From Stutzerimonas stutzeri (GTDB taxonomy: Bacteria; Pseudomonadota; Gammaproteobacteria; Pseudomonadales; Pseudomonadaceae): a stretch of 64,000 bases of DNA. Below the pieces are notes generated by a model. That model was not told where the DNA came from. It made no database searches and saw nothing but the letters and a program-made list of their open reading frames with translations. Positions 1,646 through 51,514 of this stretch are shown here, piece after piece. The DNA lies in contig NZ_JAMOHZ010000001.1 in the NCBI RefSeq assembly GCF_024448715.1, positions 682,001 through 746,000 of the forward strand, in the 5' to 3' direction. The stretch's first letter is position 1. Every line of letters starts with the position of its first letter. Position numbers and translations under genes: made by a program.

Positions 1646-2993
1646 CGGCGCCTCCGCGATAGCGGTGCAGCACTTTCTTGACCTCGAACGTCGAGACCAT
1701 CGGCAAGAAGCGCATGAAAAGCGAAAACGGCACGAGGAACAGGCCGAAGGTGCCGACGAACAGCGCCCAATCCCAAAACGATGGGCTGTATGGCTGCCAG
1801 CTCGACACCAAATAGTCCCGCGTCGGCGGCTGGACGATGAGCATATAGCGCTCGCACCACATCCCTACCAGCACGCCGATGGCGATCGCCAGCATCGCCC
1901 GGCCGTTGCGCCGCACCGCAGGCCACCACAGTGCCTGCACCACCACCAGATTGAAGAAGATCGCCAGCCAGAAACTCCAGGCGGTCGGTCCTGCCATTCG
2001 GTTGAGGGTGACCAGAATTTCATGTTCCTTGCCCGAGTAGAACGCGATGAACGGCTCGAGAATGTAGCCGTAGCCGGTCATCCAGGCACTGGCGAGCAAC
2101 AGCAACCCGAGCTTGTTCAGGTGGGCGTCGGTGATCAGATCCTGCCAACCAAAGAAACGCCGCAGGCCGAGCGCGATGACGATGACCATGGCGAAGCCGG
2201 AAAACACCGCGCCGGCGACGAAATACGGCGGGAACACGGTGGAATGCCAGCCGGTTTCGGGAGCGAGATCGAGCAGGAACGAATAGCCGCTGGATACCGA
2301 GAACACCAGCGGCACCGCTAGCAGCGCGATGAAGCGGTAGGTCCGGCGCCAATGGCTCCAATGCGAGGCTGCGCCACGCCAGCCGAGGGCAAGCAACCCG
2401 TAGAAAACCTGATAATGCCGCTTCGTTGCCCGGTCGCGCGCCGATGCGAAATCCGGGATCGAGCCCACGTAGAGAAACAGCAGCGACACGCCGAGATAGC
2501 CGAGCACGGCGAAAAAATCCCAGGCGGTCGGGCTCTTGAACTGTGGCCACAGTTCCATGGTGTTCGGGTAAGGCGCCGTCCAGAAGAACAGCCAGGGACG
2601 CCCCAGATGCAGGATCGGGTAGATGCCGGCGCAAACCACGGCCATCAGCGTCATCAGTTCGGCCAAGCGGTTCAGTGAATTGCGCCAGGGCCGGTTGAGC
2701 AGCAACAGCAGCGCGGAAATAAAGGTGCCGGCATGCCCTATCCCAAGCCACCACATGTAATTGATGATGGCAAAACCCCAGTTGACCGGAATGTTGTTGC
2801 CCCAGACGCCAACGCCGTTCCATAGCACCACGGTCGCAGCGGCGAGAAATACTCCGAGCAGCAGGCAGCCACAGAGAAACAGCACCCACCAGGCGCGGCG
2901 GTAGCGATTGAAGTGCACCGGGACGTCGAGCACTCGTGCAGACACTTCACCCAGCGGCAAGTCGCGGCGCAGGAAATGCGGTGTGTCAGCCAT
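1638..2993 (-). CDS. actC: Alternative complex III subunit ActC (NrfD/PsrC-like quinol-binding membrane protein)
   Basis: 451 residues with about ten hydrophobic helices, starting near residue 30 and spread to the C-terminus. It belongs to the polysulfide reductase NrfD family; in alternative complex III this subunit carries the quinol oxidation site and couples to the iron-sulfur subunit ActB. The start ATG lies 8 bases inside actB, in the same operon. No cofactor motif is expected or seen. Confidence 0.9.
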   Translation of the reverse strand: MADTPHFLRRDLPLGEVSARVLDVPVHFNRYRRAWWVLFLCGCLLLGVFLAAATVVLWNGVGVWGNNIPVNWGFAIINYMWWLGIGHAGTFISALLLLLNRPWRNSLNRLAELMTLMAVVCAGIYPILHLGRPWLFFWTAPYPNTMELWPQFKSPTAWDFFAVLGYLGVSLLFLYVGSIPDFASARDRATKRHYQVFYGLLALGWRGAASHWSHWRRTYRFIALLAVPLVFSVSSGYSFLLDLAPETGWHSTVFPPYFVAGAVFSGFAMVIVIALGLRRFFGWQDLITDAHLNKLGLLLLASAWMTGYGYILEPFIAFYSGKEHEILVTLNRMAGPTAWSFWLAIFFNLVVVQALWWPAVRRNGRAMLAIAIGVLVGMWCERYMLIVQPPTRDYLVSSWQPYSPSFWDWALFVGTFGLFLVPFSLFMRFLPMVSTFEVKKVLHRYRGGADD

Positions 2994-5937
2994 CGCGCTC
3001 CCCTTTCGCCGATTCCAGATCCAGCGGCGCCGCCTCGCCCGGCAATACGGGTGCGTCTTCGACCAGGCCGAGGTAGGTGGTCTTGGGTCTGGTGTTGAGT
3101 TCTTCGAGCAACGCGTAGTGGCGCCGGGTGCGGCGCTCGCGGTTGACCTCGGCTGCCGGATCGAGCAGGTTGCCGAAGACGATCGCCTGGGTCGGACAGG
3201 TCTGCTGGCATGCAGTTTTCACCTCGCCATCGGCGATTTCCCTGTCTTCGATTCGAGCGGCGATGCGCGCCTCGCTGATGCGCTGGACGCAGTACGTGCA
3301 TTTCTCCATCACGCCGCGGCCACGCACGGTGACATTGGGATTGCGCTGCGCCTGCAATGCTGGCGGGTCGTCTGCCGTGAGGTTGTACCAGTTGAATCGA
3401 CGGACCTTGTACGGGCAGTACGACGAACAGGTGCGGGTGCCGATGCAGCGGTTGTAGATCTGCTCGTTCAGCCCATCGGGGCCGTGCACCGTGGCGTTCA
3501 CCGGACAGCCGACCTCGCACGGTGCCTGATCGCAATGCATGCAGGGCACGGGCTGAAATGCCGACTTCGGCTCGCGCGGATCGCCGCCGTAATAATGATC
3601 GACCCGCAGCCAGTGCATCTCGCGGCCCATCCGGACCTGTTCCTTGCCGACCACAGGAACGTTGTTCTCCGCCTGGCATGCGACCACGCAGGCATTGCAA
3701 CCGATGCATTGGTCCAGGTCGATCACCATGCCCCAGGCGGTATCGCTTTTTGCCTGCGGCGGGTACAAGGTCGGTTGCGCGGGTTTCGGCGGCTCGTACC
3801 GGTATGCCTCTTCGCGCGGCAGGCTGCGGATCAGTTCCTTGCCTGCCAGCACGTGGTGCGGCTGGGTTGAAGCCAGCTCGATTCGGCCCTCCAGACGCGT
3901 CAATGCGGCGCCGGGGCGCATCCAAGGCTCATTTGCCGTGCGCAGTGGCGCAACGTTGTAGCCAAGGCCATCGCCCACCCGGCCGGCACGGCTGCGCCCG
4001 TAACCGCCGAACAGGCTGAGCGTGGCGTCAGCCTGGCCGGGCATCACCCAGGCCGGACCTTCGATGTACGCGCCATCAATGGTGACCTGCAGCCGGTCGC
4101 CACTGCTAATGCCACGCCGCTCGCTCAGGCTTGGGGAAATGCCGATGACGTTGTCCCAAGTCAACTTGCTGATCGGCTTGGGCAGTTCCTGCAGCCAGCC
4201 GAGATTGGCGAAACGGCCGTCCCAGACGCTGGGATCGGGTCGGAACAGCACAGTCAGTCCCTCTTGCGGCTCCACCGAATCCCAGCGTGGCGGCTTTACG
4301 GTCACTTCAACCGGGTCGTATGCCGAGGCGCAGATAAAGCCTCGCTCCAACGCTTCACGCCAGGCGTGGTCGTCCAGGCTCTGCCAAGTCTGACGCACCA
4401 TCGCGCGGGCGTCCGGCGTCAGTTGACCCTGAAGCAACGCGAGGATCTCGTCCGGCGAACGGCTGCTGTAGAACGGGCGCACCAACGGTTGTGCCAGACA
4501 AACGCTGCCGTCCGCGGCGCGCATATCGCACCAGCCATCGAGCGCATGGCTCAACGGCAAGTGCCAGTGGCTATGAGCGGCGGTCTCGTCGTAGTAGAGG
4601 CCGGCATGGATACGCAGCGGGACCTGCTGCAGTAAGCGCTCGAACTCAAGGTTGCCCGGCGCAGTGTGTACCGGATTGCAGTCGAGCATCAGCAGGGCCT
4701 CGACCTCGCCGTGTTCCATCGCGGTCGTCAACGCTGGGAGATCATCCAGACGTCTGCCGCCGGCTTCGATCCAAGTTATCGGCTGGGTGTATTCGAGGGT
4801 GTGGCCGATATTGCCGAGGCGCTGATTTAGCCAGTGCACCGCTGCCTGCACGTCGAGCGGTGCGAATTCGCCAGCGGTAATCAAACAACGCCCCCGACGC
4901 GCCTGCAGCCCTTCCGCCAAGGTCTCGATCCAGCGTTGCGCATCGCCTGGAAGCGGCGGTGCAGAGCTCTCGCCGAGCGCTGCGGCCAATGCCTGAACAT
5001 AGCCGTGCAATTCGGCCGGCTCGACACGCCGTCGCTCCGAGGCCTTGGCGCCGGTCACGGTCGATAACGCTTCGATGACAAACAGGCGGGCCTCGCCCTC
5101 ACCTCGCGCTGCCCGCCGCTTGCGCTCGCTCCAGCCCAGCGCGTGGGGCAGTTCGTGCGGGCCTGCGCCAAGCCAGTCATGTTCGAAGCTCAACACCCAC
5201 TCGGCATTTTCGAAACGGTAATGGGTTTCCAATGGCTGGCCGGTCGCCTGTTCGGTAGCCGCGTAAGCGTCGCCATGCCAGGGCTCGAAGCGATACAGGC
5301 GCGCTTCGGGCCAACGCTTCAGCAATTCGGCGAACTGCCGCTGCAGCGTTGGCGAACTGCTCGCCCCGGCCAGCAGATGCAGGCCGCGCCCGCCGCTGGC
5401 GTCCCACTTGGCCGCACGTTCGAAAGCCACCGTCTGGAAGGCATTCCAGGTGGTGCCGCGCCCCTGATAACGCGGCGCTTGCGATCGATCCGGGTCGTAC
5501 AGTTGAAGGATAGCGGCCTGGGTGAACGCGGTGGCTGCGCCGAGGCTGGAGGGGTGATTGGGATTGCCTTCCAGCTTGGTCGGGCGGCCAACATGGGTGC
5601 GACCCAGCACAGGCTGGGCGTAGCCGGCGAATGGAACTGCGGTGGCGTACCAACGCGCCTCACCGGGAATCACTTTTTCGGGCTGCACGACGTAGGGCAC
5701 ACCATGTTCGGGTTCCTGGCCGCACCCGGCGAGACCGGCCATAGCCATCGAGGCGCCCATCAGTTGCAGGAAACGCCGTCGATCCATCGCAGGCGCAATG
5801 CCCGGAAACTCCGCATCGACGAACTCGACGAACGCCGGCTCATCGGCCAGCTGCTCCAGGCTGCGCCAATAGCGCGGCCCATGCTGGCCTTCGAGGCGCT
5901 GGCGAATAACCGAATAGTCGAGTGGCGTGCGTTCCAT
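2986..5937 (-). CDS. actB: Alternative complex III iron-sulfur subunit ActB (molybdopterin-like plus ferredoxin domains)
   Basis: 983 residues. A short N-terminal segment precedes a twin-arginine-type signal (RRRFLQLMG at residues 53-61, ending LAGCG). The central ~600 residues resemble a molybdopterin oxidoreductase fold, which in ActB is known to lack the cofactor. The C-terminal part, from about residue 740, is a ferredoxin-like module with clustered cysteine motifs CIGCNACVVACQ, CMHCDQAPCEVGC, CIGTRTCSSYC, CTYC and CQQTC, enough for the expected [4Fe-4S]/[3Fe-4S] chain. It carries electrons from ActC to the hemes. It lies 4 bases downstream of actA. Confidence 0.92.
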   Translation of the reverse strand: MERTPLDYSVIRQRLEGQHGPRYWRSLEQLADEPAFVEFVDAEFPGIAPAMDRRRFLQLMGASMAMAGLAGCGQEPEHGVPYVVQPEKVIPGEARWYATAVPFAGYAQPVLGRTHVGRPTKLEGNPNHPSSLGAATAFTQAAILQLYDPDRSQAPRYQGRGTTWNAFQTVAFERAAKWDASGGRGLHLLAGASSSPTLQRQFAELLKRWPEARLYRFEPWHGDAYAATEQATGQPLETHYRFENAEWVLSFEHDWLGAGPHELPHALGWSERKRRAARGEGEARLFVIEALSTVTGAKASERRRVEPAELHGYVQALAAALGESSAPPLPGDAQRWIETLAEGLQARRGRCLITAGEFAPLDVQAAVHWLNQRLGNIGHTLEYTQPITWIEAGGRRLDDLPALTTAMEHGEVEALLMLDCNPVHTAPGNLEFERLLQQVPLRIHAGLYYDETAAHSHWHLPLSHALDGWCDMRAADGSVCLAQPLVRPFYSSRSPDEILALLQGQLTPDARAMVRQTWQSLDDHAWREALERGFICASAYDPVEVTVKPPRWDSVEPQEGLTVLFRPDPSVWDGRFANLGWLQELPKPISKLTWDNVIGISPSLSERRGISSGDRLQVTIDGAYIEGPAWVMPGQADATLSLFGGYGRSRAGRVGDGLGYNVAPLRTANEPWMRPGAALTRLEGRIELASTQPHHVLAGKELIRSLPREEAYRYEPPKPAQPTLYPPQAKSDTAWGMVIDLDQCIGCNACVVACQAENNVPVVGKEQVRMGREMHWLRVDHYYGGDPREPKSAFQPVPCMHCDQAPCEVGCPVNATVHGPDGLNEQIYNRCIGTRTCSSYCPYKVRRFNWYNLTADDPPALQAQRNPNVTVRGRGVMEKCTYCVQRISEARIAARIEDREIADGEVKTACQQTCPTQAIVFGNLLDPAAEVNRERRTRRHYALLEELNTRPKTTYLGLVEDAPVLPGEAAPLDLESAKGERDG

Positions 5938-5941
5938 TGAG

Positions 5942-6598
5942 TTACCTGTGGCAGATGTAGCAGTCGGTCAGGTTTTGCGTCTCGATGTGGTTCTCCCGAA
6001 TCAATCGCTCTCCCAACTGTTGACGGTCATGCGAGGTACTCCAGCCCATCTCTGTGACCGCATCGCGGGGACGCAACCGTGGCGCCGGGTTCTGGTGGCA
6101 ATCCAGGCACCAGCTCATGGTGAAGGTCTCGGCCCGGTACATCAGCGGCATGGTGTCCACCTGACCGTGGCAGGTTTCGCAACCGACCCCAGCGTTCACG
6201 TGGACGCCATGATGGAAATAGACATAGTCGGGAAGCTCACTGACCCGGTTCCAGCGCAGCGGCTCTTGCCGTGCGAGGCTCTGGCGCACCGGCGCGAGCA
6301 TCTGCGCACCGGTCCATATCTGCGAATGGCAGCTCATACAGGTATAGGTTGGCGGCAACCCAGCGACTGGGCTGACTTCGACGCTGTCATGGCAGTAGCG
6401 GCAGTCAATTTTTAGCGCCCCAGCATGATGTTCATGACTGAACGGCACCGGTTGCTGCACTACCCACCCTTTATCAGTGATGTAGTCGGAGCGATCCAGC
6501 ACCACCAGCGCAGCGAACAGCGCAAAAAGTCCACCTATCAAGATGAACAAGGCCAGACGCAGCCACATATCAGCCGAACGCGGGAAAACCTGAGCCAT
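5942..6598 (-). CDS. actA: Alternative complex III pentaheme c-type cytochrome ActA
   Basis: 218 residues from the ATG at 6598, which begins MAQVFPRSADMWLRLALF. A longer in-frame start 20 codons upstream lacks a membrane signal and is less likely. One N-terminal transmembrane anchor (about 12-34) precedes a periplasmic domain with five CXXCH heme motifs: CRYCH, CMSCH, CETCH, CLDCH and CYICH. The last is only two residues from the C-terminus. This matches the pentaheme subunit of alternative complex III. It is the first gene of the act operon; a promoter is proposed at 6832-6860. Confidence 0.92.
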   Translation of the reverse strand: MAQVFPRSADMWLRLALFILIGGLFALFAALVVLDRSDYITDKGWVVQQPVPFSHEHHAGALKIDCRYCHDSVEVSPVAGLPPTYTCMSCHSQIWTGAQMLAPVRQSLARQEPLRWNRVSELPDYVYFHHGVHVNAGVGCETCHGQVDTMPLMYRAETFTMSWCLDCHQNPAPRLRPRDAVTEMGWSTSHDRQQLGERLIRENHIETQNLTDCYICHR

Positions 6599-6680
6599 GG
6601 CCCCTTCGGAGTCGTTTGTATCAATCTGTTTCGGCCGCGAAGCGCGCCGGGAGTTCACTAACGAACTGCCACTGACCAGA

Positions 6681-6722
6681 AGCCAGGAGCCAGGAGCCAG
6701 GAGCCAGGAGCCAGGAGCCAGG
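6681..6722. repeat. Six perfect tandem copies of AGCCAGG
   Basis: The heptamer AGCCAGG is repeated six times without a mismatch (42 bases). It lies between the proposed act promoter and the actA start codon, inside the predicted 5' untranslated leader, 83-124 bases upstream of the actA ATG. No coding frame is evident. Perfect heptamer tracts can slip during replication, so copy number may vary between strains (inference). Confidence 0.95.
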
Positions 6723-6831
6723 ATTGGTCGGCAGTATGTTTGAGCGAAGCGGCAGCAAAAAAATAATCGAGCGATGTTGAACTGCTACTTCTATCGTTTC
6801 AGCAAAAATAATGATTAAAGAAATAAATATT

Positions 6832-16296: not shown

Positions 16297-18336
16297 ATGC
16301 GTAATTGGTACACAGCGCAAGAGCTGGCTGGGAAGCCAGGAATGCCCGGAACCGAGCGAGGTATACGCAAGCTTGCCGAGCGCAACGGCTGGGAAGGTCA
16401 ACGCCGCCTCGGCAGCAAGGCCATCGAATACGCCTTTGCCGTACTGCCGTCCGAAACCCAGGCCGCACTGATCGCCGCGTCAGTCGGCAGCGAGGCACCG
16501 CCGGTCGCAACCGACCAGCCTGAATCGACGCAGCGTGACGCGAAAAATGCGTCACGCTTGAGCGAAAAACAACGCTCGGTCATGACGGCTCGCCTCGCCT
16601 TCGTTCGTGAAATCGAGCGCATGAGCCAGACCATCAGCCAGCAGCGCGCCATTCTGGCCCTGGTGGACCTGGCCAAAAACGACCAGCTCAGCCCGTACCT
16701 GTCCGAACTGCTAGTCCGAGCCAACGACCGCAAGACAGAAGACCGCAGCCTTTCCGAGCGGACGCTCAAGCGTTGGCTGGGTGACTACCGCAAGCAGGGT
16801 GAAACCGGACTGGCTCCGGCGCGTGGCGGCAAGGATATGGGCGTACCGGATTGGGCGAAGGACTTCCTGCGCTGCTTTCAGCGCCCCACAAAGCCCAGCG
16901 TCGAAGCCAGCTATGCCGAGTTCGCGGCCAAGTGCCAGGGCGAGCGACCGAGCATCCACCAGGTGCGTCGTTTCCTCAACAAGCTGAGCCCGGAGGCACG
17001 CGAAGCCGGTCGCCGGACGCCGCAGGAACTCAAGGCGCTGCAGCCATTCCGCCGCCGCACCACCAAGAACATGTTCCCGTGCGACGTCTTCACGGCCGAC
17101 GGCCACAAGTTTGACGCCGAGGTTCTCAACCCACGCACCGGCAAGCCATACCGCCCGGAAACCACCACCGTCATCGACGTGGCCACGCGGCGGATCCTCG
17201 GCATCTCGATCGGCGAAGCCGAGTCGACCATCGGTGTGATGGACGCCCTGCGCGACGCCATCACACGCGGCGGCATGTTCGCCATCTTTTACGTCGACAA
17301 CGGATCCGGCTTCGCCAACAGCGCGGTGCGTGAAGTGGTCGATCGCCTCGGCGGCACAATGACCCATGCCCTGCCATACAACAGCCAGGCGCGAGGGCTG
17401 ATCGAGCGCGTCCACCAGACCATCTGGGTCAACGCAGCCAAGAAGCTCACCAGCTACATCGGCGCCGACATGGACAAGCACGCCGGCACCAAGGTGCACC
17501 GCGTCAGCCGAAAGCAGCTGCGCGAAACCGGCACCACCCGTTTGCTGCCCACGTTCAGCGAATTCATGTCGGGCGTCGAGTTCGAGATCGAGGCCTACAA
17601 CGACCGCCCTCACCGGGGCCTGGAAAAGATCCGCGACCCCGAGACCGGCAAGCTGCGGCACATGAGCCCGAACGAGGCCTGGGAAGCGGCCCGCGCCGAA
17701 GGCTGGGAGCCGATGCTCGCCCCGGCAGAGCTAGTCCACGACCTGATGCGCCCGCAGGTCATCCGCCCAACCCGGCGCGGCGAAGTGACCTGGGCCAACC
17801 AGCGCTACTTCCTCGACGCCCTGCGCGACCTGCACGGCGAAGAGATCCGGGTGGCATACGACGTTCGCGACGCCTCGCGCGTTTGGATCCGGACGCTAGA
17901 AGGCGAGCTGCTCGGCGAGGCACTGCTCGACGGCAATGCCAGCGACTACATGCCCAAGCCGCTCATCGAGCAAGCCTATGAGAAGCGCGAGCAAGGCCAG
18001 ATGAAACGCGCCATGGACAAGCTCGAAACGCTGACCGGCAAGCGCGTGGAAATGATCGCCCCGCCCTCGGCGCCATCCGCTCAGCTCAGCGGCGAGCAGA
18101 TGGCCGCAGCTCGCCAGTTCGCCATCGACCTCGCACCAACCGCCATCGACTTCCAACTGCCAGGCGACAGCGTAGCCCGCTATCGCCTGTGGAAGGAACT
18201 GGAAGCGAAGACCCAAACGGGCGCTGAGCTGACTAGCGGAGAAGCCCGCTGGCACGCGCATTACCCGAGCCGGCAAGAGTGGCAGTCAATGAAAGATTTG
18301 TTCGACGCGGACCCAAGCCAACAGGCCCGCGCGTAA
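16297..18336 (+). CDS. Mu-type DDE transposase MuA
   Basis: 679 residues (Mu A is 663). The N-terminal winged-helix end-binding domain begins YTAQELAGKPGMPGTERGIR. The integrase catalytic core has Asp268 in FTADGHKF, Asp334 in FYVDNGSGF and Glu370 in RGLIERVHQ, the DDE triad spaced as in MuA. A C-terminal region contacts MuB. It performs integration and replicative transposition of the phage. It starts 2 bases after ner with AAGGAAG upstream. All catalytic residues are intact, so it is likely functional. Confidence 0.96.
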   Translation: MRNWYTAQELAGKPGMPGTERGIRKLAERNGWEGQRRLGSKAIEYAFAVLPSETQAALIAASVGSEAPPVATDQPESTQRDAKNASRLSEKQRSVMTARLAFVREIERMSQTISQQRAILALVDLAKNDQLSPYLSELLVRANDRKTEDRSLSERTLKRWLGDYRKQGETGLAPARGGKDMGVPDWAKDFLRCFQRPTKPSVEASYAEFAAKCQGERPSIHQVRRFLNKLSPEAREAGRRTPQELKALQPFRRRTTKNMFPCDVFTADGHKFDAEVLNPRTGKPYRPETTTVIDVATRRILGISIGEAESTIGVMDALRDAITRGGMFAIFYVDNGSGFANSAVREVVDRLGGTMTHALPYNSQARGLIERVHQTIWVNAAKKLTSYIGADMDKHAGTKVHRVSRKQLRETGTTRLLPTFSEFMSGVEFEIEAYNDRPHRGLEKIRDPETGKLRHMSPNEAWEAARAEGWEPMLAPAELVHDLMRPQVIRPTRRGEVTWANQRYFLDALRDLHGEEIRVAYDVRDASRVWIRTLEGELLGEALLDGNASDYMPKPLIEQAYEKREQGQMKRAMDKLETLTGKRVEMIAPPSAPSAQLSGEQMAAARQFAIDLAPTAIDFQLPGDSVARYRLWKELEAKTQTGAELTSGEARWHAHYPSRQEWQSMKDLFDADPSQQARA

Positions 18337-18374
18337 CACAACCGGCCTCGGGGGAGGCCAAAAGGAGAGCAGTA

Positions 18375-19103
18375 ATGAGTGTTAGCAAAATCGTTGCACT
18401 AACAAACGTAGGGCTTCTGGCCAGCGCCATCGAGCGGGCTCAATCCCGGCCGATGGGGCTGCCGGGGCTGGTCGCCATGTATGGCGCGAGTGGACTCGGT
18501 AAGAGCGTCGGCGCTGCCTTCGCGGCCAACCGCTACCGCGCCTACTACGTCGAATGTCGCGACACCTGGAGCAAGAAGGCATTTCTGCAGGCCATCCTGC
18601 GCGAAATGTCAGTCCTGCCGGGCCGCACCCTGTCGGACATGGTCGACCAGGTCGCCGAGCAGCTGTCGCGCAGCGGCCGCCCCTTGATCATCGACGACGT
18701 CCAGTACCTGCTGGACAAGGCAGTGGCCAACGTCCTGACCGATATCTACAACGCGAGCCAAGGCACATTGGTACTGATCGGTGAAGAGCGCGTCCCCACC
18801 AGCCTGGCCAAGCTCGAGCGGCTGCACAACCGAGTGCTCGAATGGGTACCGGCGCAGCCAGCCACCCTTGAAGACATGCAGGCGCTCGCCGTCGCCAGCT
18901 ATCCCAAGCTGCAGATCGAAGATGCACTGCTGGAGGATCTGCGCAAAGCAGTCCACGGCTGCCTGCGGCGCGTGGCGGTCAACCTCTACCGCATCTACTC
19001 CGAGGCCGAAGCCATCGGCCTGGACGCCGTCGACCTGCAGCAATGGAAACAGCTCGGTCGAGGCTGGTTTACCGGCGAGGCGCCGGCTCGGAGGCGCGCG
19101 TAA
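18375..19103 (+). CDS. MuB-like AAA+ transposition target-selection ATPase
   Basis: 242 residues from an ATG preceded by AAGGAGAG; a longer frame into muA is rejected. Walker A GASGLGKS near residue 40 and Walker B LIIDDVQYL near 105, then a sensor region and a C-terminal helical domain. MuB binds target DNA and stimulates MuA. It is shorter than Mu B (312 residues) because the N-terminal helix-turn-helix domain is absent; the next gene encodes a separate winged-helix protein. Confidence 0.92.
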   Translation: MSVSKIVALTNVGLLASAIERAQSRPMGLPGLVAMYGASGLGKSVGAAFAANRYRAYYVECRDTWSKKAFLQAILREMSVLPGRTLSDMVDQVAEQLSRSGRPLIIDDVQYLLDKAVANVLTDIYNASQGTLVLIGEERVPTSLAKLERLHNRVLEWVPAQPATLEDMQALAVASYPKLQIEDALLEDLRKAVHGCLRRVAVNLYRIYSEAEAIGLDAVDLQQWKQLGRGWFTGEAPARRRA

Positions 19104-21252: not shown

Positions 21253-21723
21253 ATGCAGGCACGGACTATTTGCGCGCTCCCGTCGCGCTCGCCCGAGCTG
21301 GAAGCCGAGAGCCAGCGGATCGCCGCCGCGACCGAAGCCTTCCTCGCCCGTGGCGGTGAGATCGAGCAGGTCGGCGCCAAGATGCTCGACGGCCCCGCGC
21401 CGTTCTTCATCAACCCGCGCCGCACCCCGGTCTATGCGCACCTGTTCGAGAAATCGCCGGCGCTTTCCGTCTTCCCAGCACCGATCGAGCCGTTGCCTGC
21501 CGTGGCAGCACAGCCAGCCGCCCAAGTGCCCGAGCAGTTGCCGGCTCCGGTCCCCGCTGCCGCGAGCGAGGCACCGCTGAGCGACGCACAGCTGGCCGGC
21601 CGCGTCATGGCCAAGGCCGCGCTGGGCAATCCGCCCAAGCAGATCGCCGGCCAACTAGGCCTGACCGAGAAGAAGGTCCGTCAGCTCTGCCGCGATTTCC
21701 ACATCACCGCCCGTCAACGCTAG
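21253..21723 (+). CDS. Phage protein with C-terminal helix-turn-helix
   Basis: 156 residues. The N-terminal part (1-75) is of unknown fold. An Ala/Pro-rich linker (about 76-105) leads to a C-terminal helix-turn-helix (NPPKQIAGQLGLTEKKVRQL). Probable early-operon regulator. It starts one base after the preceding stop. Confidence 0.65.
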   Translation: MQARTICALPSRSPELEAESQRIAAATEAFLARGGEIEQVGAKMLDGPAPFFINPRRTPVYAHLFEKSPALSVFPAPIEPLPAVAAQPAAQVPEQLPAPVPAAASEAPLSDAQLAGRVMAKAALGNPPKQIAGQLGLTEKKVRQLCRDFHITARQR

Positions 21724-21731
21724 GAGGCCCC

Positions 21732-21959
21732 ATGGCCGAGTACACCATCACCATCAAAGACGAAGAAGGCGGCGTGTCGATCCAAATGGCCGGCCCCGCT
21801 GCAGCAGACAGCACAGCCAACGCGCTTACCCAGGGCCTGCTCGGCATGGCGCCCCGGCTGCTGGCCAAGGTCGCGCTGCAGAAGCTGCAGGAATGCAACT
21901 GCGATAAGTGCAAGGCCGAACGCCAGGCGGCAACGCCACCCAACACCACGATCCACTAG
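21732..21959 (+). CDS. Hypothetical phage protein
   Basis: 75 residues: a short beta-like N-terminus (EYTITIKDEEGG), an amphipathic helix and a CNCDKC pair near residue 56. No family recognised. Its stop codon is the first element of the hammerhead ribozyme at 21959-22015. Confidence 0.65.
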   Translation: MAEYTITIKDEEGGVSIQMAGPAAADSTANALTQGLLGMAPRLLAKVALQKLQECNCDKCKAERQAATPPNTTIH

Positions 21960-22015
21960 CGAAACCGCCCCAGCCGGGGCGGTCTGCCGGGCGTGGTGGC
22001 CCGGTACTGATGAGC
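21959..22015 (+). ncRNA. Type II hammerhead ribozyme motif, copy 1
   Basis: All catalytic core positions of a hammerhead are present in circularly permuted type II order: GAAA at 21961-21964; stem III CCGCCCC/GGGGCGG with loop AGCC; U-C at 21983-21984; stem I UGCCGGGC/GCCCGGUA with a 6-base loop; then CUGAUGA at 22007-22013. Stem II is open and only 2 pairs long (GC at 21959-21960 with GC at 22014-22015). Predicted cleavage is between 21984 and 21985. It fills the space between a stop codon and the next gene's Shine-Dalgarno (GAGGAAG). Second copy at 23114-23177. Confidence 0.85.
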
Positions 22016-22028
22016 AGCCGAGGAAGCA

Positions 22029-22430
22029 ATGGAGCAAGAAGACTGGGACGCGTTGAAGGCGCAGATGGACAGCCCCTGGGGGCAAATGACGCTGCAGTGC
22101 GACGAATACGAGTTGACCCTGCAGCAGCAGACAGCGAACAAGAGTTGGTCGACGGCCGTATACGTCAATGGCGTATTCAAGGGTGCCTGGATGCATTCGA
22201 CCAGGGACGGCCAGCCAGTACACGAGGAAGCACGTCGTTTCCTCAGGAAATCGACACAGGCGCTGTACAGCCGCAAAGAGATCGAGCTGACTCGCAAGGC
22301 CTTTGGCAAGCGTGAAGCGGCGAAACGAGAGGCAACGAAAATCATCTTCTTTCAGCCCACCTGGAAGAGCTTCGCCTCACTGAAAAAGCAGCTTCTAGCC
22401 CACAACACCACCATCAAACGCATCCACTAG
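22029..22430 (+). CDS. Hypothetical phage early protein
   Basis: 133 residues, starting 13 bases after the ribozyme with GAGGAAG as the ribosome site. Mixed alpha/beta N-terminus (TLQCDEYELTLQQQTANKSW) and a basic helical C-terminus. No family recognised. Its mRNA would begin with the stem I hairpin if the ribozyme cleaves. Confidence 0.65.
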   Translation: MEQEDWDALKAQMDSPWGQMTLQCDEYELTLQQQTANKSWSTAVYVNGVFKGAWMHSTRDGQPVHEEARRFLRKSTQALYSRKEIELTRKAFGKREAAKREATKIIFFQPTWKSFASLKKQLLAHNTTIKRIH

Positions 22431-22438
22431 GAACCGAC

Positions 22439-23113
22439 ATGGACCGGCAAAAAGCACTGGAGAAGATCAAGAAGTGCCTGCGGCTCGCCGCGAGCAGCAA
22501 CCCCAACGAAGCGGCTGCCGCCATGCGCCAGGCGCGGGCGATGATGGAGAAGTACCGGATCGAGGACGCCGATGTGCTGATCGCCGACGTTATCGAAGCG
22601 TCAGCGCGCAGCGGCGCCAAGACCCGCCCCGTGGCATGGGAAGCCGGCCTGGCCGAAGTCGTCGGTAAGGCGTACTGCTGCAGTTTCCTGTTTTTGTCCG
22701 GCCGTGGTGAATACCGTTTCATTGGCGAGATGGCCGAAGTGGCCAGCTACACCATGACCATCCTGTTGCGTCAGGTCCGCCAGGCCAGGCGCGACTACAT
22801 CGCCGACCACCTGGCCCGCTGCAAAGCGAGCACCAAAACCAAGCGTGCTGACGTGTTCTGCAACGCCTGGGTGTGGAAGGTGCGTGGCAGCGTATGGGCA
22901 TTTGCCGGTTCGGAAGAACCGAGCGCAGCGGTGGCCACCTACATGGCCAAGCACTACCCGGAGCTAAGCAGCTTCCGCCCCGTCGACCGCAGCGGCGACA
23001 AGAAGCGCATGAGCCAGCGCGACTACCAGGACGCCGCGCGCGGCATTGAGGCCGCGAAGGGCGTTCAGCTCAACCACGGGGTCGATGGCCAGGCGCCGCT
23101 GGCATTGCACTGA
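22439..23113 (+). CDS. DUF2786 domain phage protein
   Basis: 224 residues. The N-terminal 40 residues (ALEKIKKCLRLAASSNPNEA … RQARAMMEKYRI) are the DUF2786 signature. The following domain includes YCCSFLFLSGRGEYRFIGE and is of the type usually fused to DUF2786 in phages. Function unknown; common in early regions of Mu-like and other phages. Its TGA lies one base before the second hammerhead. Confidence 0.85.
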   Translation: MDRQKALEKIKKCLRLAASSNPNEAAAAMRQARAMMEKYRIEDADVLIADVIEASARSGAKTRPVAWEAGLAEVVGKAYCCSFLFLSGRGEYRFIGEMAEVASYTMTILLRQVRQARRDYIADHLARCKASTKTKRADVFCNAWVWKVRGSVWAFAGSEEPSAAVATYMAKHYPELSSFRPVDRSGDKKRMSQRDYQDAARGIEAAKGVQLNHGVDGQAPLALH

Positions 23114-23177
23114 GCGAAACCTAGCCCCTTCACCGGGGCGATGGTCTGCCGGGCGTGGTTGCCCGGTACTGATGAGC
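23114..23177 (+). ncRNA. Type II hammerhead ribozyme motif, copy 2
   Basis: Same architecture as copy 1: GAAA at 23116-23119; stem III with CC/GG next to the core, an internal loop (UA versus GAU), then GCCCC/GGGGC and loop UUCACC; U-C at 23145-23146; stem I UGCCGGGC/GCCCGGUA (loop GUGGUU); CUGAUGA at 23169-23175. Stem II is again GC/GC. Predicted cleavage is between 23146 and 23147. Stem III differs in sequence and length from copy 1 yet still pairs, which argues for selection on RNA structure. It lies between the DUF2786 stop and the next Shine-Dalgarno. Confidence 0.85.
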
Positions 23178-23190
23178 AGCCGAGGACACG

Positions 23191-23412
23191 ATGCAACTGC
23201 TACGAAACCGAGCCGACTGGTGCAACTGGGCCGAAGGCCTGGCTGGCATCAGCATTCGCCACAACTACAACGTGCCGGCCGAGCCTGCCACTTATCCCTG
23301 CTTCGCTTACGCGGTCGCCGAGTGCCTACTTGGTGAAGTCGAGGCGCCTCGCTACCTGATGGGCTCGGAGCTCTGCGAGATGATGGCCGCGCTCCTGGAG
23401 GCGCATCCATGA
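23191..23412 (+). CDS. Hypothetical phage early protein
   Basis: 73 residues starting 13 bases after ribozyme copy 2, with GAGGA upstream. Contains the sequence WCNWAEGLAGISIRHNYNVP. No family recognised. Four-base overlap with the next gene (ATGA-type). Confidence 0.65.
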   Translation: MQLLRNRADWCNWAEGLAGISIRHNYNVPAEPATYPCFAYAVAECLLGEVEAPRYLMGSELCEMMAALLEAHP

Positions 23413-23690
23413 CCGAGCAAAGCAAGGCTGAACGGGTACGCAAGCAGAACGCTGCACGCCAACAATCGAAGCGCGACCGCACCCTGCTACACCGCGAAAA
23501 GGTCGGTGCCGAGAAGATCAAGTTCGAAATCTACAGCGGCACCCGCCGCGACCTCGACGCGATGCAACAGGTCGGCGGCTACACCGAAGCCGGTGAGGCA
23601 ATCACGCTCGCCATTCGCTACATGGCCGATATGGCCCGCCGAGATCCGGCTGCATTCGCCGAGGCAATGAACCCGAGGAACCCGTTGTGA
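23409..23690 (+). CDS. Small basic phage protein, possible DNA binder
   Basis: 93 residues. The N-terminal ~35 are highly charged and Lys/Arg/Gln rich. The rest (FEIYSGTRRDLDAMQQVGGY … AITLAIRYMADMARRDP) has the strand-helix-helix shape of ribbon-helix-helix-like proteins, though the family is not certain. Coupled to both neighbours by overlaps. Confidence 0.6.
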   Translation: MTEQSKAERVRKQNAARQQSKRDRTLLHREKVGAEKIKFEIYSGTRRDLDAMQQVGGYTEAGEAITLAIRYMADMARRDPAAFAEAMNPRNPL

Positions 23691-24088
23691 GCAGTCTTGC
23701 CAAGATCCACATCGCCAAAAGCCAGCTGGGCATGGATGACGACACCTATCGCGCGTTGCTAGCCCGAGTGGCCGGCGTTCGCTCAGCGAAAGACCTGAGC
23801 CCGCGCCAGATCGGGGCCGTGCTGGCTGAGTTCGTCCGTCTCGGCTTCCAGCCCAAGCCAGCAAAGAAGGCCGGCAGAGCGGTGCCAAAGCCCGCGCAAG
23901 ATCGAGCAGCACTGGTCGGCAAGATCGAAGCCTTCCTGGCCGAAGCAAACCGCCCCTGGGCATACGCCGACGCGATGGCGTTGCGTATGTTCAAGGTCGA
24001 ACGGGTAGAATGGCTCGATAGTGGCCAGTTGCAACGTCTGGTCGCCGCCTTTGTGTATGACGCCAAGCGCCACGGGAAGCCCACCTAA
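23687..24088 (+). CDS. gemA: GemA family phage regulatory protein (Mu gp16, DUF1018)
   Basis: 133 residues with a GTG start overlapping the previous stop (GTGA). The opening LAKIHIAKSQLGMDDDTYRA followed by LLARVAGVRSAKDLSPRQI is diagnostic of the GemA/gp16 family. In Mu, GemA affects host DNA topology and gene expression during lytic growth. It directly precedes mor, as in Mu. Confidence 0.9.
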   Translation: MSSLAKIHIAKSQLGMDDDTYRALLARVAGVRSAKDLSPRQIGAVLAEFVRLGFQPKPAKKAGRAVPKPAQDRAALVGKIEAFLAEANRPWAYADAMALRMFKVERVEWLDSGQLQRLVAAFVYDAKRHGKPT

Positions 24089-24516
24089 TGGAAATCGACC
24101 AGGTCAAAGAGCTGCTGCCAAAGCAACTGCTGGACATCGCAGAGGCCATCGGCCTGCCCGCAGCCCAGCGCCTGGTCGACGAGTTGGGCGGCACCACCTG
24201 GCCAGTCGCTAAAGGCGTGCGCCGGCTGGGCATCATCCGGCACGAAGCCTTGAAAGAAGTGATCGGTGAGCGTGCAGCCACCATCATGGCCGAGCAATGG
24301 GGCAGCGTGCCGCTGTACATCCCCAAGTGCGAAGCCGCTATCCGCCGCCTGCGTGACCTGGAGATCAACCGCCAGTACGTCCAGGGCGTGCGCGAGGGCG
24401 TGTCGGCCAATACCTTGGTCGCCGAGTTGGCCCGCAGCTACAAGCTGAGCGATCGGCGGGTCTGGGAGATCCTGAAGCAGCCCTCACCCGAGGCAACTGG
24501 CGACCTTTTTCACTAG
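24088..24516 (+). CDS. mor: Mor-family middle/late transcription activator
   Basis: 142 residues, start overlapping the gemA stop (TAATG). Contains the Mor/C dimerisation region (IAEAIGLPAAQRLVDELGGT) and a C-terminal helix-turn-helix (TLVAELARSYKLSDRRVWEI). Mu uses Mor for middle and C for late transcription. No second Mor/C-like gene is seen here, so this single protein may drive the late operons directly, including the matching leaders at 25199 and 34352 (inference). Confidence 0.92.
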   Translation: MEIDQVKELLPKQLLDIAEAIGLPAAQRLVDELGGTTWPVAKGVRRLGIIRHEALKEVIGERAATIMAEQWGSVPLYIPKCEAAIRRLRDLEINRQYVQGVREGVSANTLVAELARSYKLSDRRVWEILKQPSPEATGDLFH

Positions 24517-51424: not shown

Positions 51425-51514
51425 TGGCGGAGGAGGTGAGATTCGAACTCACGGAAGAGTTTCCCCTTCGACGGTTTTCAAGACCGTTGCATTCAACCGC
51501 TCTGCCACTCCTCC
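51425..51514 (-). tRNA. tRNA-Ser (anticodon UGA)
   Basis: Minus-strand cloverleaf: acceptor GGAGGAG/CTCCTCC, discriminator G, encoded CCA. Anticodon loop CTTGAAA, giving UGA. It has the long variable arm of class II serine tRNAs and a T-loop GTTCGAATC. Length 90 including CCA. Confidence 0.96.

What the first reader, a model, noticed from the sequence alone, without database searches (positions are those of the whole stretch)
21959..22015. Type II hammerhead ribozyme bridging a stop codon and a Shine-Dalgarno in a Mu-like early operon
Seen: GAAA, stem III, U-C, stem I and CUGAUGA occur in the order of a circularly permuted type II hammerhead, with A15.1-U16.1, G10.1-C11.1 and H17=C all satisfied. 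The element begins on the last base of a stop codon and ends five bases before the next gene's GAGGAAG. Cleavage at 21984/21985 would split the early transcript, leaving the downstream mRNA with a 5'-OH and a capping hairpin (stem I). Established: type II hammerheads exist in bacterial and phage genomes. Inference: here it acts as an mRNA processing device that sets relative stability or translation of early genes. The 2-pair stem II is unusually short.
Basis: partly seen in the sequence, partly recalled or inferred. Interest (0 to 1): 0.93.

Follow-up and report, generated by a model that had tools for sequence, protein, structure and literature searches.

The report
Ribozyme pair fencing a phage gene slot
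Two RNA motifs of a known self-cutting kind (hammerhead ribozymes) fence off two swappable genes in a Mu-like prophage and are predicted to cut the messenger RNA on both sides of them; laboratory phages such as DMS3 carry a copy too, so what such ribozymes do for a phage could be tested.

Summary
They bracket two genes (133 aa; 224 aa, DUF2786/DUF7168) in a Mu-like early operon. The class, short stem II, pseudoknot and copies flanking prophage genes were published in 2011 (PMC3088659), and phage LESphi4 is annotated with RF02276 at the same place. So: new member of a known kind.

What I add: in 29 of 29 related loci with two ribozymes, one or both accessory genes lie between them and none of seven other mapped genes does. 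Where slot content differs, the left edge falls 4-21 nt past HHR1 in 11 of 13 pairs; the right edge falls at HHR2 in 4 of 13, mostly between slot genes otherwise. In 34 distinct copies ten core positions never change while free position N7 does; no decayed copies were found. Best explanation: both likely self-cleave, releasing the slot mRNA with hairpin-closed ends. Cleavage here is untested; the benefit is inferred.

The parts
21957..22023 (+). Type II hammerhead ribozyme, copy 1 (HHR1)
   Evidence: RF02276, 77.6 bits, gathering 37
21984..21985 (+). Predicted cleavage site of HHR1 (after C17)
   Evidence: Position from the alignment and hammerhead numbering; cleavage untested
21957..21959 (+). 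TAG stop of the upstream 75-aa gene; its G is the first base of stem II
21964..21983 (+). Stem III hairpin, would become the 3' end of the upstream product
   Evidence: 8 bp, loop AGCC; upstream product folds at -17.3 kcal/mol
21985..22006 (+). Stem I hairpin, would become the 5' end of the downstream product
   Evidence: 8 bp, loop GUGGUG; downstream product folds at -17.2 kcal/mol
21994..22020 (+). Predicted pseudoknot, loop I UGGU (21994-21997) with tail GCCG (22017-22020)
   Evidence: In A1, 91.8% of cells pair at these columns; all 4 pairs form in 37 of 46 sequences
22020..22026 (+). Shine-Dalgarno-like GAGGAAG; its first base is the last pseudoknot base
22029..22430 (+). Slot gene B133 (133 aa, phrog_5671, function unknown)
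   Evidence: present or absent between the ribozymes in relatives
22439..23113 (+). Slot gene C224 (224 aa, DUF2786 + DUF7168, phrog_421); its TGA stop abuts HHR2
23112..23185 (+).
   Evidence: RF02276, 59.3 bits
23146..23147 (+). Predicted cleavage site of HHR2
   Evidence: cleavage untested
21732..21959 (+). Upstream 75-aa gene A75 (phrog_3652)
23191..23412 (+). 73-aa ORF D73 directly downstream of HHR2
   Evidence: same place in the relatives in which it was detected
23409..23690 (+). 93-aa ORF E93 (phrog_4093)
23687..24088 (+). GemA (Mu-like core gene)
   Evidence: PF06252, E 8.6e-27
24088..24516 (+). Mor-type activator of later genes
   Evidence: PF08765, E 8.9e-15
16297..18336 (+). MuA-like transposase
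   Evidence: PF02316, PF09299
18279..19103 (+). MuB-like AAA protein
   Evidence: PF13401, PF05621

Best explanation
The window holds two type II hammerhead motifs on the coding strand of a Mu-like early operon, at 21957-22023 and 23112-23185, and they are predicted to cut the transcript at 21984/21985 and 23146/23147, which would free the two genes between them as a separate 1162-nt mRNA. Shown by sequence: both motifs, their family membership, their place directly after a stop codon and before the next gene's start, conservation of the core in relatives, and the fact that in relatives the ribozymes enclose a slot whose accessory genes vary. Inferred: cleavage in the cell, as in the published A. 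tumefaciens triple. Inferred from the permuted layout: the upstream product keeps stem III as a hairpin one base from its new 3' end, and the downstream product starts with the first base of the stem I hairpin, so both new ends would be closed; only the 2-bp stem II joins the halves, so products should part at once. Inferred function: each gene block between cuts gets its own mRNA with uniform, protected ends, so a gene swapped into the slot would be expressed independently of its neighbours, a natural counterpart of the engineered RiboJ insulator.
For: RF02276 hits at 77.6 and 59.3 bits. Stems I and III covary: changes on both sides at 8 of 8 stem I pairs and 4 of 6 stem III pairs counted; over the whole structure 94.9% of cells pair against 29.8-46.1% with the partner slid, and the covariation score 0.646 is reached by 0 of 500 shuffles. 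Base pairing is kept on the RNA strand: 41 G-U against 7 A-C cells. In 36 loci, 34 fetched by protein or flanking DNA rather than by ribozyme, the model found 50 copies at 60 bits or more and otherwise only two matches at 11.8 bits; in the 34 distinct copies C3, U4, G5, A6, G8, A9, G12, A13, A14 and A15.1 never vary, a GUC is present in all, N7 varies (U 25, C 8, A 1), and C11.1 is U in 2. Placement: 158 of 182 distinct copies have the stop of an open frame of at least 50 codons within -12..+5 of stem II, control 521 of 5597 positions; 84 of 182 abut exactly, control 57 occurrences in 5597; 156 of 183 have an ATG frame within 30 nt downstream, control 1448 of 5553; 0 of 35 multi-copy loci mix strands. 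Slot: 29 of 29; breakpoints. No promoter- or terminator-like site was found in 21700-23500. Published: tandem hammerheads self-cleave in vitro, and an A. tumefaciens triple cleaves in E. coli (PMC3088659, passages). RiboJ, a hammerhead plus hairpin, raised mRNA about twofold and protein two- to tenfold in insulated reporter genes (PMC6206723, passages).
Against: No cleavage data for these copies. HHR2 is weaker and has an internal loop in stem III. 12 of 53 loci keep slot genes and the downstream junction but have only HHR1 (a thirteenth, L161, ends inside C224), so release of the slot as a separate RNA is dispensable there. One of the five measures of the structure count is not striking: 14 pairs with changes on both sides, against 12.5 in shuffles, reached by 24 of 500. 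A benefit for mRNA stability or insulation has no direct evidence in phages. A ribosome ending at the abutting stop would cover the GAAA strand (inference), so cleavage could be limited by translation.
Confidence: 0.66

Rival explanations
1. DNA-level reading: the repeated ribozyme sequence serves mainly as a short homology patch at which slot genes are gained or lost by recombination, and any RNA cutting is incidental.
For: D3112 and JBD24 are 97.9% and 96.8% alike on the two sides of 693 bp present in JBD24 in place of 4 bp in D3112; the left edge is the last base of the ribozyme tail AGCC. L132 (no slot gene, one copy) matches L067 HHR1 with its left flank at 97.65% and HHR2 with its right flank at 92.5%, overlapping over the ribozyme. 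L014 and L143 against L048: the right block starts exactly at the first base of HHR2.
Against: In 7 of 13 pairs with different content the right edge lies between slot genes, and in D3112/JBD24 it lies after C224 where no ribozyme stands; a left edge at the ribozyme is also what any conserved junction element would show. A homology patch needs identity, yet stems vary by compensatory pairs, and copies in one genome are no more alike (0.826) than copies 1 and 2 taken across loci (0.821). Core is fixed with N7 free, and G-U pairs exceed A-C.
Confidence: 0.13
2. Circular mRNA: the released slot RNA carries stem I and CUGAUGA at its 5' end and GAAA plus stem III at its 3' end, so the two halves could rejoin, alone or with a host RNA ligase, into a circle that encodes the slot proteins.
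For: Tandem same-strand copies with matching halves; the rejoined halves would make a full hammerhead (inference).
Against: PMC3088659 looked for spliced or circular products and was unable to detect either. Only 2 bp would hold the halves together. Of 53 loci, 24 show one copy only (one of them, L161, is cut short).
Confidence: 0.04
3. Translation-gated switch: a ribosome ending at the abutting stop, or one loading at the Shine-Dalgarno that overlaps the pseudoknot, blocks folding, so the ribozyme cuts only poorly translated transcripts and shifts the balance of early genes.
For: Stop codon shares a base with stem II and the pseudoknot shares one with GAGGAAG; exact abutment in 84 of 182.
Against: No measurement. 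Tight packing of phage genes alone would give the same spacing; 98 of 182 do not abut exactly.
Confidence: 0.12
4. Inert remnant: hammerhead-like sequence with no activity or use.
For: No activity data for these copies; RF02276 over its cut-off is rare in host genomes (3 of 97 relatives; 3 of 369 of the class; both with Infernal's stricter filters).
Against: No decayed copies beside the 50 intact ones; covariation; unchanged core; relatives of this family cleave (PMC3088659).
Confidence: 0.03

Closest known systems
Tandem hammerheads flanking genes in prophages (Perreault et al. 2011, PMC3088659; passages read)
   Same: Type II layout, short stem II, loop I to tail pseudoknot, several copies flanking single genes or short blocks whose identity varies; processing to gene-length mRNAs proposed.
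   Different: The main text has no occurrence of Pseudomonas or recombination, so it does not spell out this Mu-like slot, single-copy slot-less alleles or breakpoints; its figures and supplements were not seen.
Pseudomonas phage LESphi4 (OQ594957), ncRNA 'Hammerhead ribozyme (type II), RFAM RF02276'
   Same: Same family, same place: after the A75-like gene and before a small gene, GemA and Mor.
   Different: One copy; B133, C224 and E93 not detected; N7 is C.
Casadabanvirus phages D3112, DMS3, JBD30, JBD24
   Same: One intact copy at the same junction; 118 of 123 phage records matched by the D3112 element plus flanks cover at least 80% of the query.
   Different: No HHR2 seen; slot empty (D3112, DMS3, JBD30) or holding C224 (JBD24). 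None of these four records annotates the ribozyme in the stretches I fetched.
RiboJ genetic insulator (PMC6206723; passages read)
   Same: Hammerhead upstream of a gene that leaves a uniform hairpin at the 5' end.
   Different: Engineered from a satellite RNA ribozyme plus added hairpin and placed after a promoter; here natural, permuted, inside an operon and in a pair.
Regions of genomic plasticity in P. aeruginosa Mu-like phages (PMC4378225; passages read)
   Same: Accessory genes at fixed insertion sites, mainly in the left arm of D3112-like phages.
   Different: No occurrence of 'ribozyme' in its main text; I did not match its RGP letters to this slot.

Membership tests
Type II hammerhead ribozyme (RF02276) | Covariance-model score over the curated cut-off | tested here: met
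   77.6 and 59.3 bits against 37
Type II hammerhead ribozyme (RF02276) | Invariant core C3-U4-G5-A6-N7-G8-A9, G12-A13-A14, A15.1-U16.1, H17 (numbering partly recalled) | tested here: met
   Both window copies; ten of these positions unchanged in 34 distinct related copies, N7 free, GUC present in all 34
Type II hammerhead ribozyme (RF02276) | Permutation: stems I and III closed by loops, stem II open | tested here: met
   Alignments to the family structure
Type II hammerhead ribozyme (RF02276) | Stems kept by compensatory change | tested here: met
   Stems I and III; stem II never varies in A1, so it says nothing
Type II hammerhead ribozyme (RF02276) | Loop I to 3' tail pseudoknot (common, not universal) | tested here: met
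   91.8% of cells paired; changes on both sides at 2 of 4 pairs only, and the tail was fixed in the search pattern that brought in most rows, so covariation is weak
Type II hammerhead ribozyme (RF02276) | Self-cleavage after H17 giving 2',3'-cyclic phosphate and 5'-OH ends | not testable with these tools
   Needs in vitro transcription and end mapping
Mu-like transposable phage | MuA/MuB-type transposition genes followed by GemA and Mor on one strand | tested here: met
   PF02316/PF09299, PF13401/PF05621, PF06252, PF08765
RiboJ-like insulator | Downstream gene's expression made independent of upstream sequence | not tested
   Layout fits; no expression data
Circular RNA-forming paired hammerheads (retrozyme/viroid style; recalled) | Circular RNA product | not testable with these tools
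   PMC3088659 was unable to detect circular products

The most novel reading that the evidence does not exclude
Mu-like phages carry a ribozyme-fenced plug-in slot: a natural insulator in which any gene that recombines in behind HHR1 is cut out of the early transcript as its own hairpin-capped mRNA, so that mosaic gene exchange does not upset expression of the essential neighbours. The same short element would serve at two levels, as a homology patch at which genes are exchanged in DNA and as the scissors that isolate them in RNA. This would give bacterial hammerheads, whose use has been open since 2011, a concrete role.
Probability: 0.3. Interest if true: 0.8.

Novelty: new member of a known kind. 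Interest (0 to 1): 0.52.

Why it matters
What phages and bacteria use hammerhead ribozymes for is unresolved. Here the motif sits at a fixed place in Mu-like phages, beside a slot whose content changes between close relatives, and an intact copy lies in well-used laboratory phages (D3112, DMS3, JBD30). That makes the question directly testable: natural alleles with no, one or two slot genes, and with one or two ribozymes, already exist. If the insulator reading holds, mosaic phage operons have a built-in way to accept new genes without disturbing the old ones.

Tried and rejected
Concerted evolution of the two copies in one genome: rejected. Mean identity within a locus is 0.826, HHR1 to HHR2 across loci 0.821, HHR1 to HHR1 0.853, HHR2 to HHR2 0.832 in 24 loci with distinct pairs.

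Terminator or promoter at the junctions: 0 of each found in 21700-23500; shuffles gave 2.2 terminator-like and 0.2 promoter-like sites on average.

Widely spread host gene: rejected. In 97 genomes drawn as relatives only 3 (own included) have RF02276, each with two copies on one strand. The same 3 are the only ones with a GemA at 95% identity or more; a fourth genome has a 45% GemA and no RF02276 match.

E93 and B133 as bait in viral contigs gave one relative each, A75 six, so those sets are small. The E-value scan of the 401-bp stretch listed four other families far below their cut-offs: chance.

Published link between hammerheads and D3112-like phages: none seen in the listings (titles, starts of abstracts and term counts only; several lists were cut, e.g. 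25 of 359 papers and 15 of 23). The one paper listed that holds both 'hammerhead ribozyme' and JBD30 (PMC10651486) was not opened.

Mended after a check against the calls: I had first written that the outer stem II pair is present in 185 of 185 copies; the finder fixes its 5' G, so that count is dropped. I had counted L161, which ends inside C224, as lacking HHR2. I had written that breakpoints in general fall at ribozyme edges; right edges do so in 4 of 13 pairs. For that last reason the odds of the novel case went from 0.33 to 0.30 and of the DNA-level rival from 0.15 to 0.13.

Limits of the sets. Model search of those loci used L007-L106, 100 of 120. A1 used 46 rows: 45 of the 50 representatives (L001 entered as the window copy; five left out) plus the second window copy. 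One search left out L130, L133, L035 and L167 and used default filters, which can lose weak matches. The loci (all then held) include overlapping stretches of one contig; HHR sequences were made distinct, loci were not. Of the 53 loci, 33 came by protein or flanking DNA and 20 by a search that included the ribozyme; several are near-identical (for example L140/L146, L144/L145, L014/L103), so counts are not independent. My finders require core bases; the less biased check is. One search dropped matches downstream of GemA; the one such match (L152, 5930) is not supported by the model. In one search the HHR2 product folds were cut one base off and the interval ends assume 64-nt ribozymes.

Full report
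OBSERVATION. Rfam RF02276 (Hammerhead_II) matches 21957-22023 on the + strand with 77.6 bits against a cut-off of 37. These are the only two matches at E <= 0.001 in the 4.6-Mb genome (150 of 1840 first-look candidates were scored). Cleavage would fall at 21984/21985 and 23146/23147, 1162 nt apart. The 2-bp stem II is ordinary: the Rfam model has two stem II pairs, and PMC3088659 says stem II commonly has as few as two.

SETTING. The operon is Mu-like: MuA-type transposase (16297-18336), AAA/TniB protein (18279-19103), then small genes, GemA (23687-24088) and Mor (24088-24516). Between the ribozymes lie B133 (22029-22430, phrog_5671) and C224 (22439-23113, DUF2786 + DUF7168). HHR1 shares one base with the TAG stop of A75; stem II of HHR2 begins right after the TGA stop of C224. 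No promoter- or terminator-like site lies in 21700-23500.

IS IT A WORKING RIBOZYME BY SEQUENCE? In an alignment of 46 diverse copies, stem I has changes on both sides at 8 of 8 pairs and stem III at 4 of 6; over the whole structure 94.9% of cells pair, against 29.8-46.1% when partners are slid. Four of five measures are reached by 0 of 500 shuffles; the number of pairs with changes on both sides (14, shuffled mean 12.5) is reached by 24 of 500. G-U cells outnumber A-C cells 41 to 7, which points to selection on the RNA of the coding strand; the cells are not independent, and one stem I pair supplies 18 of the 41 G-U cells. The less biased test used loci fetched by protein or flanking DNA: supplied 34 of the 36 loci. 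The model found 50 copies, all at 60 bits or more, and otherwise only two matches at 11.8 bits. Of the 36 loci, 22 have one copy and 14 have two. Among the 34 distinct copies, C3, U4, G5, A6, G8, A9, G12, A13, A14 and A15.1 never change, and a GUC is present in all; N7 varies (U 25, C 8, A 1); C11.1 is U in two, which still pairs with G10.1. That N7 is the free position of CUGANGA is recalled; the passage seen shows only the end of the position list and defines N as any nucleotide.

PUNCTUATION. In 182 distinct copies with enough upstream sequence, 158 have the stop codon of an open frame of at least 50 codons within -12..+5 of stem II, against 521 of 5597 control positions in the same loci; 84 abut exactly (offset -1 or 0), against 57 such occurrences in the 5597 controls. 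Downstream, 156 of 183 have an ATG frame of at least 30 codons within 30 nt, against 1448 of 5553. None of 35 multi-copy loci mixes strands. The extreme case is L030, with 11 RF02276 matches in a row on one strand; in 8 of its 10 intervals the longest ORF ends within 6 nt of the next ribozyme.

A SLOT BETWEEN RIBOZYMES. I mapped nine reference genes and the ribozymes in 53 loci. Of the 29 loci with two ribozymes, 29 have B133 and/or C224 between them (C224 15, B133+C224 8, B133 6), 0 have either outside, and 0 have any of the other seven mapped genes between; unmapped stretches do lie between in some (for example L032, L048, L150, L152). Of the 24 with one ribozyme, 0 have B133/C224 upstream of it; 13 have them downstream (L161, cut short inside C224, cannot show HHR2, so 12 are informative) and 11 lack them. 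Loci with none: 0 of 53, but 20 of the 53 were fetched by searches that included the ribozyme. All 23 loci fetched with C224 alone as bait have HHR1 upstream.

BREAKPOINTS. I compared 16 pairs; 3 have the same content (L150/L032, L144/L128, L021/L062). In 11 of the 13 with different content the left block ends 4 to 21 nt past the stem II end of HHR1; L143/L048 share B133 and part later; L141/L127 gave only an 85-bp match. A left edge there is expected of any conserved junction element. The right edge lies at HHR2 in 4 of 13 (exactly at its first base in L014/L048 and L143/L048; within 6 nt in L140/L062 and L132/L067), between slot genes in 7 (a gene added in front of C224 without a ribozyme of its own), after C224 in D3112/JBD24, and is unreadable in L141/L127. 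D3112 (slot empty) and JBD24 (C224) are 97.9% and 96.8% alike on either side of 693 bp in JBD24 that replace 4 bp in D3112; the left block ends on the last C of the ribozyme tail. At N7 D3112 has U and is followed by the E93 gene; JBD24 has C and is followed by C224. L132 (slot empty, one copy) matches L067 (C224, two copies) twice: left flank plus ribozyme to HHR1 at 97.65%, ribozyme plus right flank to HHR2 at 92.5%, overlapping over the ribozyme. That is what recombination between two tandem copies would leave, or what its reverse would start from.

MECHANISM. Published for the family: tandem prophage copies self-cleave in vitro, and an A. tumefaciens triple cleaves in E. coli (PMC3088659); cleavage after H17 is recalled. 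From the layout: cutting a type II hammerhead leaves stem III as a hairpin one base from the new 3' end, and stem I as a hairpin starting at the new 5' base; only stem II, two pairs, holds the products. Median hairpin energies are -14.0 and -14.0 kcal/mol for stems III and I in 185 copies. Such ends should resist end-dependent decay (general knowledge; not tested here). RiboJ shows that a hammerhead leaving a 5' hairpin raised mRNA about twofold and protein two- to tenfold in reporter constructs; its authors offer higher mRNA stability through the terminal hairpin as a possible cause (PMC6206723). I therefore read the pair as a natural insulator around an exchangeable gene slot. Cleavage here is likely; insulation is inference.

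RESULTS AGAINST. HHR2 is absent in 12 informative loci that keep slot genes, so the pair is not essential for them. HHR2 in the window has a broken stem III. Copies are not homogenised within a genome, so frequent exchange between the two is not supported. Most right edges are not at HHR2. The C224 to E93 junction of JBD24-type loci has no ribozyme. RF02276 over its cut-off is rare in bacterial genomes sampled: 3 of 97 and 3 of 369, with two members shared.

WHAT IS KNOWN. PMC3088659 already reports type II hammerheads, the short stem II, the pseudoknot, and multiple copies flanking genes of changing identity in prophages, with mRNA processing proposed and circles sought but not detected. LESphi4 is annotated with RF02276 at this junction. 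118 of 123 phage records matched by the D3112 element plus flanks cover at least 80% of it. A study of accessory genes in this phage group does not contain the word ribozyme in its main text (PMC4378225). The window is thus a new member of a known kind; the exchangeable slot enclosed by ribozymes in Mu-like phages is the part I did not find in print in the searches listed under Tried and rejected.

Noticed in passing
L030 (IMGVR_UViG_3300017605_000570), 2817-6749, - strand: Eleven RF02276 type II hammerheads in a row, about one per small gene; in 8 of 10 intervals the longest ORF ends within 6 nt of the next ribozyme.
   Followed up: partly
L011, L101, L102: Eight, nine and six RF02276 hammerheads per contig piece, several of a variant with a GGC...GCC stem II and shifted pseudoknot tail.
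   Followed up: no
L157/L158, end of the C224 gene: The C224 to E93 junction lacks a ribozyme but reads TGAGCG...GTCCGGT...GATGA, possibly a deletion remnant of HHR2.
   Followed up: no
window 21253-21723: 156-aa early protein with a SutA RNA-polymerase-binding domain (PF20661, E 2.5e-8): a possible phage factor acting on host RNA polymerase.
   Followed up: no
L003 1209-1499 and L004 1202-1492: An HU-like gene sits between A75 and HHR1 in several relatives but is absent in the window: a second variable position just upstream of the ribozyme.
   Followed up: partly
L104 4697-4759, L094 4535-4601, L017 4198-4258: Weak model matches (31.4, 23.2 and 36.8 bits); possible diverged or decayed copies outside the slot context.
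   Followed up: no
window 51428-51514, - strand: tRNA gene found by the Rfam scan (59.4 bits).
   Followed up: no
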